From the NCBI RefSeq assembly GCF_014205225.1, contig NZ_JACHNB010000001.1:2647501-2711500 (forward strand): a stretch of DNA of 64,000 bases, given 5' to 3'. Positions 2,324-47,485 of the stretch are shown here, piece after piece. The DNA is from Actinoplanes octamycinicus. GTDB lineage: Bacteria > Actinomycetota > Actinomycetes > Mycobacteriales > Micromonosporaceae. The notes under the pieces were generated by a model. It saw nothing but the letters and a program-made list of their open reading frames with translations. It was not told the origin of the DNA and ran no database searches. A program made the position numbers and the translations under genes. Within the stretch, counting starts at the first letter, position 1; each line of letters begins with the position of its first letter.

Positions 2324-3323
2324 CGTCGTCCTCGAGACCAAGGGTCTGGTCAAGCACTTCCCGATCACCCAGGGCATCGTCTTCAAGAGCAAGGTCGGCG
2401 CGGTCCGGGCGGTCGACGGGGTCGACATCCACCTGCGCCGGGGCGAGACCCTGGGCGTCGTCGGCGAGTCCGGCTGTGGCAAGTCGACCCTGGCCAAGCT
2501 GCTGGTCGGCCTGGAGAAGCCGACCGCCGGCTCGATCAACGTCCGCGGTCAGGACATGGTGAAGCTGAAGGGGTCGGCGCTGCGCCGGGCCCGGCGGAAC
2601 ATCCAGATGGTGCTGCAGGACCCGTACACGTCGCTGAACCCGCGCATGACGGTCGGCGACATCATCGGGGAGCCGTTCACGATCCACCCCGAGGCGGTGC
2701 CGAAGAACGGCCGGCAGCGCGCGGTGCAGGACCTGCTGGACACGGTCGGTCTCAACCCCGACCACATCAACCGGTACCCGCACCAGTTCTCCGGCGGTCA
2801 GCGCCAGCGCATCGGCATCGCCCGGGCGCTCGCGCTCAAGCCCGAGATCATCGTCTGTGACGAGCCGGTGTCGGCGCTCGACGTGTCCATCCAGGCCCAG
2901 GTGATCAACCTGCTGGAGCGGCTGCAGAACGAGTTCGGCCTGTCGTACATCTTCATCGCGCACGACCTGTCGGTGGTCCGGCACATCTCCGACCGGGTCG
3001 CCGTGATGTACCTCGGCAAGGTCATCGAGACGGGCCACGACCAGGCGATCTACGAGCAGCCGACGCACCCGTACACGCAGGCGCTGCTCTCCGCGGTCCC
3101 GGTCCCGGACCCGCGCCTGCGCGGCCAGCGCGACCAGATCGTGCTGGAGGGCGACGTCCCGTCCCCGGCCAACCCGCCGTCGGGTTGCCGGTTCCGCACC
3201 CGGTGCTGGAAGGCCCAGGAGATCTGCGCCCAGCAGGAGCCCCTGCTGCAGATCCGCGACCGCTCCCCGCACCCCAGCGCGTGCCACTTCGCGGAGATCC
3301 GCGACGTGGTCCACGGCCGCTGA
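2316..3323 (+). CDS. dppF: Peptide ABC transporter ATP-binding protein (DppF/OppF type)
   Basis: This is the second ATPase of the importer, 335 residues from GTG 2316. That start is preferred over the longer open frame because it overlaps the dppD stop, has a GGGAGG ribosome site at 2303-2308, and begins the family-like MSDVVLETKGLVKHFP. Walker A is GESGCGKST (residues 50-58), the signature is FSGGQRQR, and Walker B is VCDEPVSALD. The C-terminal Cys-containing peptide-transporter motif (GCRFRTRC) is present. It is the last gene of the operon; a strong terminator follows within 15 bases. Confidence 0.94.
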   Translation: MSDVVLETKGLVKHFPITQGIVFKSKVGAVRAVDGVDIHLRRGETLGVVGESGCGKSTLAKLLVGLEKPTAGSINVRGQDMVKLKGSALRRARRNIQMVLQDPYTSLNPRMTVGDIIGEPFTIHPEAVPKNGRQRAVQDLLDTVGLNPDHINRYPHQFSGGQRQRIGIARALALKPEIIVCDEPVSALDVSIQAQVINLLERLQNEFGLSYIFIAHDLSVVRHISDRVAVMYLGKVIETGHDQAIYEQPTHPYTQALLSAVPVPDPRLRGQRDQIVLEGDVPSPANPPSGCRFRTRCWKAQEICAQQEPLLQIRDRSPHPSACHFAEIRDVVHGR

Positions 3324-3336
3324 CGTTCGCCGTAGG

Positions 3337-3367
3337 AAGGCCGGACCGTTCGCGGTCCGGCCTTTTT
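3337..3367 (+). terminator. Rho-independent terminator of the dpp operon
   Basis: A perfect 12-bp stem (3337-3348 with 3353-3364) closes a TTCG tetraloop, and the stem runs into a T tract at 3363-3367. It lies 13 bases after the dppF stop. Confidence 0.93.
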
Positions 3368-3422
3368 GCTGCCCCAGGCAGGTAACGAGGGTTTCAGCTA
3401 CCTGCCGCTGCCGCGGACTTCG

Positions 3423-3489
3423 AAGATCAAATTCGTCATTCAAGATCTTCATTTACGCGCGTCCGCCGGGGTACGGACCGCATGCTCCC
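3423..3489 (-). repeat. Dispersed palindromic repeat, copy A, distal half (split by the IS110 element)
   Basis: Read on the minus strand, this segment starts GGGAGCATGCGGTCCG and continues through GGCGGAC and GCGTAAAT to AATTTGATCTT. It matches the second half of copy B (47242-47300) with a few substitutions and one insertion of about a dozen bases. The first half of copy A lies on the other side of the IS element at 4915-4981. Confidence 0.85.
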
Positions 3490-3501
3490 GGCACCCCTCT
3501 G

Positions 3502-4680
3502 TCAAGGGGTTGGTGTGAGGGGTGTTTTAGGGTGGTGGTTGGCGGGTCCGGGTTGTGACTTTTCCGAAGTGTCGATCTTGGGGTTTGGGTCGGCCGCGCT
3601 GGAGTTCAGAGTCGCCCCCGTGTGTCCTCCCGGACCCGTCGCTGTCTGTTGTGCCGTGTGGTCGTCTTTGATCATTTGGCGGTAGACGGTGTCGGACAGG
3701 CGTCGTTTCAACGCTCGCATGGCTTCCATCGCGGTTTTGCCTTCGGCGCGTTTGCGCTGGTAGTAGGCGCGGCCGGGGGTGTCGAAGCGGAGCTGGGTGA
3801 TGGCCATGATGTGCAGGACCCGGTTGATGCGCCGGTTCCCGGCCCGGTTGAGCCGGTGATGATGGTTGTCGCCGGAGGACACGTCGATGGGGGCGGTGCC
3901 GTTCCAGGTGGCGAAGTGCCCGCGGGTCGGGAAGCGGCTGATGTCGCCGATGTCGCCGAGCAGGCGGGCGGCGCCGGAGGGGCCGATGCCGTTGAGGCTG
4001 GTCAGCTGGGTGCCGGTGGCGGCCAGCACGGTCTTCAGCTGCCGGTTGGCTGCTTTGATCTTGGTGTCCAGGGTGGTGAGCTCGTCGGCCAGGTCGCCGG
4101 CCAGCTGATAGCGGGTGGCGGTGACGATGTCGCCGGCCGGGACGCTGACGCGTTCGAGCAGGGTGCGGGCCTGGTCGGTGGTCAGGTTCTTCTTCGCGCC
4201 GCCGGGGATCAGTTCGAGCAGTAGCTGGTGCAGCCGGTTGATGGTCTCGGTGCGGGCGACACCGAGCTGGTCGCGGCGGTCGGCCAGCAGCCGCAGCGCG
4301 ACGGTGGCGCCGTCGGCGTGAACGCGGCGCAGGCCCGGGGTGCGCAGGGCGGTCACCGCGATGTGGTGCGCGTCGTGACCGTCGGTTTTACGGCCGTGCC
4401 CGGTGTCAAAGTTGCGGGCTTTCGCGGCGAGTTTCGCCGGGACGTCCAGCACGGTTTCGCCGTCGGCGACCAGCCGCTGGGCCAGGTGCCGGCCGATGCC
4501 GTTACAGCCCTCGACCGCCCACACCCGGCCGGCGTGACGGCGGCCGGCGGCGAGCATCTGCTGGTAGCCACCGGTGTCGGTGCCGTACCTGCCACGGGCC
4601 AGCACCTGTTCACGCTCGTTGATGATCTCGATCGTCGCGGACCGCTTGTGCGGATCGACTCCAATGATCAGCTGACCCAT
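3502..4680 (-). CDS. IS110-family transposase (DEDD recombinase), intact
   Basis: From the ATG at 4680 the protein has 392 residues, normal for the family; an in-frame ATG at 4719 would add 13 residues that lack family character. The N-terminal RuvC-like DEDD domain shows D9 (GVDPHK), E57 (AVEG), D100 and D103 (KTDGHDA). The C-terminal Transposase_20 domain contains the helix-hairpin-helix-like SLNGIGPSGAARLLGDIG and the APIDVSSGDNHHH segment expected to carry the catalytic serine. No frameshift or internal stop is seen, so the enzyme may be active. It moves the element by RNA-guided recombination if it behaves like IS621. The Pro/Thr-rich tail is atypical but not disruptive. Confidence 0.93.
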   Translation of the reverse strand: MGQLIIGVDPHKRSATIEIINEREQVLARGRYGTDTGGYQQMLAAGRRHAGRVWAVEGCNGIGRHLAQRLVADGETVLDVPAKLAAKARNFDTGHGRKTDGHDAHHIAVTALRTPGLRRVHADGATVALRLLADRRDQLGVARTETINRLHQLLLELIPGGAKKNLTTDQARTLLERVSVPAGDIVTATRYQLAGDLADELTTLDTKIKAANRQLKTVLAATGTQLTSLNGIGPSGAARLLGDIGDISRFPTRGHFATWNGTAPIDVSSGDNHHHRLNRAGNRRINRVLHIMAITQLRFDTPGRAYYQRKRAEGKTAMEAMRALKRRLSDTVYRQMIKDDHTAQQTATGPGGHTGATLNSSAADPNPKIDTSEKSQPGPANHHPKTPLTPTP

Positions 4681-4914
4681 GTACCCGTTGACCTTCCCGT
4701 CGTCGCGGCAGAACCACACCAGCGGGAGGGCAACGCTACTTACAGCTGGGCAAACCCCTCTTCAGCCACTCCGCGCCACGGTGACCGGCAGGGTCCAAGC
4801 CGGGAGAGAGCCACACCCCGCCATATGAGTGGGCAGCGCGGGCCTGAGCACCCTACCGATCACCTCGACCAAGCCTGGCCGGGCCGCGGTCGTACACCAA
4901 ATTCTCTTTAAGTA
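4681..4914 (-). ncRNA. Candidate bridge-RNA region (left end of the IS110 element)
   Basis: This is the non-coding left end between the element boundary and the transposase start. In IS110-group elements such as IS621 a structured bridge RNA is transcribed from this part, with one loop matching the target and one matching the donor. A 10-base string here (4835-4844, AGCGCGGGCC on the plus strand) is identical to the target flank at the left junction (4914-4923), as expected of a target-binding guide. Folding was not computed, and a matching guide for the other half-target was not found. RNA identity is inferred from position and this match. Confidence 0.45.
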
Positions 4915-4981
4915 GCGCGGGCCGGGCACGGCGATCTGGCCGCTGGCGCGTCCAGAGCGATCGCCGCACCCTTCATTCTCC
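4915..4981 (-). repeat. Dispersed palindromic repeat, copy A, proximal half
   Basis: Read on the minus strand, this is nearly identical to 47175-47241, with about five differences in 67 positions. It contains the hairpin arms GGCGA...TCGCC enclosing TCTGG...CCAGA. Identity stops at 4915, exactly where the IS110 element begins. Confidence 0.88.
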
Positions 4982-5246
4982 GTGGGTGGTCGCTGTTCGG
5001 GGCGCTGCGTGGGCGGTCGCTGTCCGGGGCGCTGTGTGGGGGTTGCTGTTCGGGGCGCTGCGTGGGCGGTCGCTGTCCGGGCGCTGCGTGGGCGGTCGCT
5101 GTCCGGGCGCTGTGGGTGGTTGTTGTCCGGGGCGTTCCGTGGGTGGTCGCTGTCCGAGGCGTTCCGTCGTTGGTCGCTGTCCGGGCGCTCTGTGCGTGGT
5201 CGCTGTCCGAGGCGACATCGAAGCGTGGTCGCTGTCCGAGGCGACA
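4981..5246. repeat. Minisatellite, about ten copies of a 25-28 bp unit
   Basis: Successive units resemble GTGGGCGGTCGCTGTCCGGG followed by GCGCT; they vary by one-base indels and substitutions. Unit length is not a multiple of three throughout and the region lies in a gap between genes. Long open frames across it are therefore by-products of the repeat and not genes. Confidence 0.9.
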
Positions 5247-47174: not shown

Positions 47175-47300
47175 GGGCAATGAAGGGCGCGGCGATCGTT
47201 CTGGACGCGCCAGCGGCCAGATCGCCGGGCCCGGCCCGCGCGGGAGCATGCGATCCGAACCCTGGCGGACCTGCGTGAATAGCAATTTTGATCTTGGAGG
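47175..47300 (+). repeat. Dispersed palindromic repeat, copy B (uninterrupted)
   Basis: This matches copy A on both sides of the IS110 element (4981-4915, then 3489-3423, minus strand). The core hairpin is GGCGA (47191-47195) with TCGCC (47222-47226), and TCTGG (47200-47204) with CCAGA (47217-47221). A 32-codon open frame starting ATGAAG at 47180 also exists in copy A, but the differences between copies do not favour synonymous sites, so I treat it as non-coding. Confidence 0.85.
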
Positions 47301-47319: not shown

Positions 47320-47485
47320 GCCGCCCGAACAGGAAGCGGCCCGAACAGGCAGCGGCCCGCGCAAGAAAGCGGTCCGCACAAGGAAGCGGTCCGCAGCACA
47401 GGGAAGCGGTCCGGGCAAGGGAGCAGTCCGCACAGGGAGCGACCCCGGCAAGGGAGCGGTCCGCGCATGGGAGCGGGCCGGGAAA
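47320..47485. repeat. Minisatellite of about 16-18 bp units
   Basis: Units resemble CAAGGAAGCGGTCCGCA and GGGAGCGGTCCG, about nine copies with variable linkers. The gap 46973-47533 contains this tract, the dispersed repeat and the ppc terminator, and no supported gene. Confidence 0.85.

What the first reader, a model, noticed from the sequence alone, without database searches (positions are those of the whole stretch)
3423..4981. Complete IS110 element inserted inside a palindromic repeat, with its ends defined by an empty copy in the same window
The minus-strand sequence 4981-4915 matches 47175-47241, and 3489-3423 matches 47242-47300. Joined together, the two flanks rebuild copy B almost base for base, so 3490-4914 is an insertion of about 1425 bp. 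IS110 ends are normally hard to define because they lack inverted repeats. IS110 relatives such as IS621 are known to target REP-type palindromes, which fits here. A GC dinucleotide is found at both junctions and may be the core.
Basis: partly seen in the sequence, partly recalled or inferred. Interest (0 to 1): 0.78.

Follow-up and report, generated by a model that had tools for sequence, protein, structure and literature searches.

The report
RNA-guided jumping gene in palindromic repeats
A jumping gene in an Actinoplanes-type soil bacterium sits 34 times at the same base of a folded DNA repeat, apparently aimed by its own guide RNA, and at one key base its guides match the joined product rather than the two starting DNAs, which hints at how such insertions could be pushed forward.

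Summary
The 1,425-bp IS110 element at 3490-4914 (minus strand) is one of 34 copies in its 10.28-Mb genome. All 34 sit at the same base, in the same orientation, of a three-hairpin palindromic repeat. For 14 of the 34 sites an orthologous uninterrupted repeat was found in one sister genome, so the ends 3490 and 4914 hold. "GC core at both junctions" is wrong: left junctions read GC, right junctions CC, and the uninterrupted repeats GC; only one C is shared. The 5' noncoding region has an IS621-like set of guide arms. The left target guide equals target positions 1-9. The two right arms mismatch target or donor at positions 7-8 but pair with the products. The position-8 asymmetry recurs in relatives: target, left guide and both right arms show it in 80 of 90 aligned. 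In IS621 terms, handshake pairing reaches into the core. No RNA, circle or reaction was observed; a forward bias for insertion is inferred. Verdict: new variant of a known kind.

The parts
3490..4914 (-). IS110 element, 1,425 bp, inserted between position 9 and 10 of its target
   Evidence: 34 copies with identical ends; orthologous uninterrupted site
3502..4680 (-). transposase/recombinase CDS (ATG at 4680, TGA at 3504-3502); PF01548 + PF02371
   Evidence: D22, E70, D113, D116 and S282 (numbering from 4719) invariant in the 11 aligned sequences, window and 10 relatives; their equivalence to IS621 catalytic residues is inferred, helped by the alignment with ISCro4
4681..4914 (-). left noncoding end (234 nt) that carries the predicted bridge RNA
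   Evidence: guide matches; guide-flank agreement across relatives; fold (z -1.07, 27 of 200 shuffles fold as well, so not significant by itself)
4836..4844 (-). left target guide (LTG) GGCCCGCGC, identical to target positions 1-9
4799..4806 (-). right target guide (RTG) plus handshake base, CTCCCGG-C; pairs with right product G-CC-GGGAG
4754..4761 (-). left donor guide (LDG) AGAGGGGT, identical to the element's right end up to donor position 6
4734..4742 (-). right donor guide (RDG) plus handshake base, TAAGTA-GC-G; pairs with left product C-GC-TACTTA
3500..3505 (-). TTGACA (-35-like) at the right end; overlaps the stop codon
   Evidence: sequence
4901..4906 (-). GAGAAT (-10-like, 4 of 6) at the left end; would lie 18 nt from TTGACA across a circle junction
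   Evidence: sequence; promoter not tested
4915..4981 (-). left half of the palindromic repeat; target positions 1-9 at 4923-4915
3423..3489 (-). right half of the palindromic repeat; target positions 10-14 at 3489-3485
47175..47300 (+). uninterrupted copy of the repeat; exact 14-base target at 47233-47246

Best explanation
It is an IS110-family insertion sequence aimed by a bridge RNA made from its left end. SHOWN by sequence: one fixed insertion point and orientation in the second hairpin (CCC-GCGC-GGG) of a three-hairpin repeat; net insertion of 1,425 bp between GC and GGGAG with no duplicated target base; guide-like arms in the left end that match target and element ends; the same layout in relatives with other targets; at position 8 the target has G and the element C, the left target guide encodes the target's G, and the right target and right donor arms pair at positions 7 and 8 only with the recombined products. 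INFERRED: the RNA is transcribed from a promoter rebuilt in the excised circle; top strands are cut after position 9 and swapped as in IS621. LEAST SURE: the product-only pairs at 7-8 act as handshake guides that pull the strand swap forward and favour insertion over excision. The confidence below is for RNA-guided insertion with unequal cores; for the forward ratchet it is 0.45, as in the section on the most novel reading.
For: 34 of 34 copies with identical junctions and orientation. Uninterrupted sites without the extra C: 13 of 13, all 126 printed of 131 counted in 7 of 67 genus genomes, 14 of 14 orthologous sites. Guides: LTG 9 of 9 target bases; RTG 7 of 10 pairs (G-U counted) with the target before and 9 of 10 with the right product after; RDG 7 of 10 with the donor and 9 of 10 with the left product; positions 7 and 8 mismatched before and Watson-Crick after in both arms. 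Each arm occurs in under 1% of 20,000 mononucleotide shuffles of the left end (132, 194, 128 and 8). Relatives: guide-to-own-flank matches exceed all 10,000 permutations for LTG (490 of 576 against mean 406, sd 8.9; 64 elements) and RTG (171 of 205 against mean 141, sd 5.3; 41 elements). Alignment without motif rules, 90 relatives: target8 G 82, LTG8 G 88, RTG8 G 87, RDG8 C 89, all four together 80; right end CC in 61 of 62 located. All 34 insertions are in perfect 14-base targets, against 13 of 23 uninterrupted repeats (Fisher p 2.6e-5). A single RE-LE abutment in another genome reads TG-CC-TACTT. IS621 geometry: passages and section 11 of PMC11208158.
Against: No RNA, circle or protein activity was observed. 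The arms were looked for with the IS621 layout in mind. The fold energy is not exceptional (z -1.07, 27 of 200 shuffles as good). LDG matches the donor only up to position 6 and not at 7-9. In most relatives target position 7 is G (84 of 90), so the position-7 handshake of the donor loop belongs to this element, not to the clade. Because RTG8 and RDG8 hardly vary, no covariation can be shown at position 8 itself, and they could have a structural role; the mismatch could simply be tolerated. The orthologous empty repeats are not identical to the joined flanks (105 of 124 up to 136 of 140 identical, 0-4 internal gaps), so the exact pre-insertion letters are inferred from neighbours. 35 of 109 relatives were not parsed, and its parser anchors on GC, GGC and CGGC motifs; 28 of 90 right ends were not located. 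8 of 90 relatives do not have G at target position 8 (3 A, 2 C, 3 gap).
Confidence: 0.8

Rival explanations
2. Same element and guides, but the position-8 mismatch is neutral: a one-base core (C) is enough, and the RTG/RDG bases at position 8 are held by RNA structure or protein contact, with no handshake role. (This rival concerns only the ratchet step of the best explanation.)
For: RTG8 and RDG8 hardly vary in the clade (87 and 89 of 90), so covariation at position 8 itself cannot be shown.
Against: Both arms fit the products and neither fits its own substrate at this base; IS621 work shows that product-only pairing just upstream promotes strand exchange and that substrate pairing blocks it (PMC11208158 section 11).
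Confidence: 0.4
3. Site choice by the transposase protein reading the hairpin (REP-like DNA structure), with the RNA matches incidental.
For: Target lies in a conserved hairpin whose neighbour stem has compensatory changes; older work proposed protein recognition of REPs (PMC1525189 passages).
Against: Guide arms follow the flanks across relatives with different targets; insertions are found only in perfect targets; RNA guidance is established for IS621 and ISEc21.
Confidence: 0.04
4. The 34 copies were not inserted independently but spread together with the repeats by duplication or gene conversion.
For: Only 5 distinct element sequences among 34 copies.
Against: 34 distinct flanks and 14 sites with empty orthologs at matching loci in a sister genome.
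Confidence: 0.03

Closest known systems
IS621 (Escherichia coli), IS110 family, with bridge RNA
   Same: RuvC-like DEDD plus serine recombinase, long left noncoding end, target and donor loops with two guide arms each, insertion into palindromic repeats, -35/-10 halves at the two ends, handshake pairing (PMC11208158 and PMC11208160, passages and one section).
   Different: IS621 has the same CT core in target and donor; here position 8 differs (G in target, C in element) and pairs only in the products. Protein similarity to IS621 and ISCro4 is weak outside the C-terminal domain.
ISPpu9, ISPpu10, ISPa11, ISRm19 (IS110 members with all copies in REPs)
   Same: All copies associated with REPs (7/7, 7/7, 6/6, 4/4; PMC1525189 passages).
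   Different: Other bacteria; here 34 of 34 copies in an actinobacterial three-hairpin repeat, with orthologous empty sites for 14. Their guides and cores were not examined here.
ISEc21 (IS110, seekRNA)
   Same: Upstream noncoding region, insertion without duplicated target bases (PMC11187229 section 12).
   Different: Its target is a linear sequence inside other IS; unequal cores and handshake pairing do not appear in the section and passages I saw.
54-72% identical IS110 elements of Actinoplanes, Micromonospora, Nocardia and others
   Same: Mostly the same ends (TACTT...G[TA]GCC), same RNA layout, same position-8 asymmetry.
   Different: Other targets, usually CGGC at the left of the cut; this element has GCGC with a matching change in its guide.

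Membership tests
IS110 family | transposase with PF01548 and PF02371 above cut-off | tested here: met
   75.4 and 77.8 bits, cut-offs 29 and 21.3; NF033542 equivalog 180.8 bits, cut-off 140
IS110 family | catalytic D-E-D-D and serine | tested here: met
   D22, E70, D113, D116, S282 invariant in 11 aligned sequences; equivalence to the IS621 residues by alignment with ISCro4 and inference
IS110 family | no terminal inverted repeats; noncoding region upstream of the gene (IS110 rather than IS1111 type) | tested here: met
   no inverted pair of 12 or more in 3490-4914; 234 nt upstream of the ATG, 12 nt after the stop codon
IS110 family | circular double-stranded intermediate with promoter at the junction | tested here: inconclusive
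   TTGACA and GAGAAT would lie 18 nt apart; one RE-LE abutment in another genome; no circle observed
bridge RNA system (IS621 type) | target loop with two arms that pair with left target bottom strand and right target top strand | tested here: met
   by sequence only; the RNA was not observed
bridge RNA system (IS621 type) | donor loop with two arms that pair with both element ends | tested here: met
   by sequence only: RDG positions 9-14, LDG up to position 6
bridge RNA system (IS621 type) | identical core dinucleotide in target and donor | tested here: not met
   GC left and CC right in 34 of 34 copies, GC in uninterrupted sites. Reported for IS621 and orthologues; I do not take it as a definition of the IS110 family
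REP-targeting IS | all copies at one point of a palindromic repeat | tested here: met
   34 of 34; repeat structure
RAYT-associated REP | repeat mobilised by a RAYT | tested here: inconclusive
   5 Y1_Tnp genes in the genome; a link to the repeat was not tested

The most novel reading that the evidence does not exclude
A whole clade of actinobacterial IS110 elements carries a built-in mismatch at the first core base between target and donor, and its bridge RNA is written for the products, not the substrates: the handshake reaches into the core. This would make position 8 (and in this element also 7) a ratchet that drives the first strand swap forward, biases towards insertion over excision, and removes the need for a shared core dinucleotide.
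Probability: 0.45. Interest if true: 0.7.

Novelty: new variant of a known kind. Interest (0 to 1): 0.55.

Why it matters
Bridge recombinases are being developed as genome-editing tools, and for IS621 pairing to a shared CT core is strongly preferred (PMC11208160 passages). A natural clade with unequal cores gives a direct test of whether core identity or product pairing matters, and a possible design rule for one-way insertion. The published boundary method took repeated sequences near the ends as cores and kept hits only if the core was concordant (PMC11208160 passage), so unequal cores may have been missed (inference). Because target and element differ at positions 6, 7 and 8, the 34 pairs of junctions also record which strand's information survives: the target's on the left and the element's on the right, in 34 of 34.

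Tried and rejected
Rfam: five weak matches at E<=1 in 3300-5100, all below gathering score; none at E<=1 in four repeat loci. TIGR-Tas similarity: below its cut-off (52.3 against 100 bits). Defence-system models: none. Promoter scan of the integrated element: 0 found (it could not test a joined circle junction). Parsers for relatives: one search was a first look and one search placed only 3 elements; both were replaced. Because anchors on GC, GGC and CGGC motifs, the position-8 statement rests on the alignment without motif rules. Target motif of relatives, CTCATCGGC(N0-2)AGATCCGG, in 120 genomes: 20 places, 13 without spacer, 6 with one base (1 of them C), 1 with two; supportive only. Perfect targets: 23 of the 26 uninterrupted or partial repeats had a locus and entered the count; the scar L046 was dropped; of the 3 without a locus 2 are perfect and including them does not change the result (p 2e-5 to 5e-5). 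The 14-base target is GC-rich: its reversed control also has 6 matches in the genome, but the 15 true matches all lie in repeats listed.

Full report
OBSERVATION. The window is G000:C1:2647501-2711500 of a single-contig genome of 10,277,926 bases. The tool calls G041 and G064 same-genus genomes; their loci L086 and L092 have the same flanks as named loci of Actinoplanes sandaracinus and A. philippinensis (L135, L137), so the host is taken to be Actinoplanes. A search with 3423-4981 gave 34 full-length copies plus half-matches in repeats without the element (40 of 927 candidates scored); a protein search with all 77 candidates scored gave the same 34 plus 3 distant IS110 genes. All 34 have the same junctions: left ...GGCCCGCGC|TACTTAAAG, right ...GACAGAGGGGTGCC|GGGAGC. 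They are 5 distinct sequences (19, 5, 5, 4 and 1 copies) with 34 distinct flanks, which suggests a recent burst.

ENDS. The sister genome G051 has only two IS110 matches, both distant (best E 8e-25; 9 of 40 candidates scored). It carries an uninterrupted repeat at the place of the window's insertion. I fetched 58 G051 regions that cover the 59 repeats printed, of 64 counted, and compared them with the flanks of all 34 sites, leaving out 120 and 80 bases next to the junctions: 14 sites have both flanks in one region, 11 have one flank, 9 none. In all 14 the intact site reads GGCCCGCGC|GGGAG (for L020 the region holds two repeats on opposite strands, both without an extra base). The repeats themselves have diverged (105 of 124 to 136 of 140 identical to the joined flanks; the best, L012, has no gap). 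So the element is 1,425 bp inserted between C and G with no duplicated target base. One former copy is now a 6-base scar (TACTTA, L046).

CORE. If a shared GC were the core, the right junction should read GTGC|GGGAG; it reads GTGCC|GGGAG in 34 of 34. Either the element brings the extra C or the targets once had it. The second is contradicted by the intact repeats: 13 of 13 in the own genome with a pattern that allowed 0-2 extra bases, all 126 places printed of 131 counted in 7 of 67 genus genomes with 0-2 extra bases allowed, and 14 of 14 orthologs. In IS621 numbering (core = 8-9, cut after 9) the target has G8 C9 and the element C8 C9.

BRIDGE RNA. The 234 nt before the ATG contain, in order, GGCCCGCGC (identical to target 1-9), CTCCCGGC, AGAGGGGT and TAAGTAGCG, the order LTG, RTG, LDG, RDG of IS621. 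The predicted fold puts the first two on opposite sides of a loop region closed by a long stem and holding a hairpin, but its energy is not exceptional (z -1.07). RTG pairs with the target at 9-14 but not at 7-8; with the right product it pairs at 7-14. RDG pairs with the donor at 9-14 but not at 7-8; with the left product it pairs at 7-14. LDG matches the donor only to position 6. In the IS621 structure the top strands are cut after position 9 and swapped; RTG then pairs with the incoming donor core and RDG with the incoming target core; pairing of the handshake bases to the incoming strand promotes exchange and pairing to the own strand blocks it (PMC11208158, passages, section 11). The element fits this scheme with the handshake moved one base into the core.

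RELATIVES. I had 109 relatives (29, 80 named). One search placed ends and guides in 63 non-redundant ones plus the window (35 not placed, 11 duplicates). LTG matches its own left flank at 490 of 576 cells (positions 1-9, G-U allowed) against 406 (sd 8.9) for permuted pairs; RTG matches its own right flank at 171 of 205 cells (positions 10-14, 41 elements) against 141 (sd 5.3); none of 10,000 permutations reached either. Related sequences are not independent, so this is support, not a probability. Without motif rules I aligned 90 distinct relatives with the window: target position 8 is G in 82, LTG8 G in 88, RTG8 G (pairs C) in 87, RDG8 C (pairs G) in 89, all four together in 80. The right end, located in 62 of 90, has CC in 61. 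Target position 7 is G in 84 of 90, so the position-7 handshake seen here is not general. One abutted RE-LE pair (G043:C134), the only one found in 200 genomes with the pattern used, reads TG-CC-TACTT, as expected if the donor core is CC; it could itself be an insertion product.

TARGET. The consensus fold of 23 uninterrupted repeats has three hairpins; 7 of 30 predicted pairs have changes on both sides, all in the first hairpin. The insertion lies in the second, CCC-GCGC-GGG. That hairpin is itself a palindrome, so the reverse orientation differs from the guide only at outer positions (from the sequence), yet all 34 copies point one way. All 34 are in perfect 14-base targets, against 13 of 23 intact repeats (Fisher p 2.6e-5). 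The intact ones were found by similarity to copy B with 40 of 222 candidates scored, which should favour perfect ones. Fifteen perfect intact targets remain in the genome.

WHAT IS INFERRED. No RNA, circle or reaction was observed. That product-only pairing drives insertion forward extends IS621 results by one base. The uniform junctions (target bases 6-8 left, element bases 6-8 right, 34 of 34) mean either that both strands are exchanged at the same place or that the top strand always wins; the structure paper offers bottom-strand exchange and repair only as a possibility (passage).

NOVELTY. REP-targeting IS110s with all copies in REPs are known (PMC1525189 passages), bridge and seek RNAs are known, and insertion without duplication is reported (PMC11187229 section 12 and passages). 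An unequal core with guides written for the products was not in what I saw: passages of PMC11208160 and PMC11208158, section 11 of the latter, section 12 and passages of PMC11187229, passages of PMC1525189, and the listings of searches (open-licence library only; figures and supplements not seen). So I claim only that I did not find it.

Noticed in passing
G000:C1:7272570-7272684 (L046): A repeat with only TACTTA of the element left and part of the right half gone: a 6-base scar that looks like a deleted 35th insertion.
   Followed up: partly
window 4981-5214 and 47331-47480: Tandem arrays (27-bp unit and 17-bp unit) lie next to both copies of the palindromic repeat in the window; the first begins at the edge of the half-repeat.
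   Followed up: partly
G051, G035, G022, own genome: The palindromic repeat is abundant in four of 67 genus genomes (64, 42, 10 and 12 places with an exact pattern), single in three and not found by this pattern in the other 60.
   Followed up: no
L166 and L172 (flanks): The targets of some related elements are themselves palindromic, e.g. CGCTCAT-CGGC-ATGAGCG in L166, so the clade may favour inverted repeats.
   Followed up: no
G043:C134:1390-1406 (L294): Two related but different elements abut head to tail, right end to left end, with CC between them.
   Followed up: partly
L097 and L101 upstream: Two relatives have GAC instead of GGC left of the cut, do not match their own left guide, and share a similar stretch upstream that again contains GACTACTT.
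   Followed up: no
G000, five places: Five Y1_Tnp (HUH) transposase genes in the genome; a link to the palindromic repeat was not tested.
   Followed up: no
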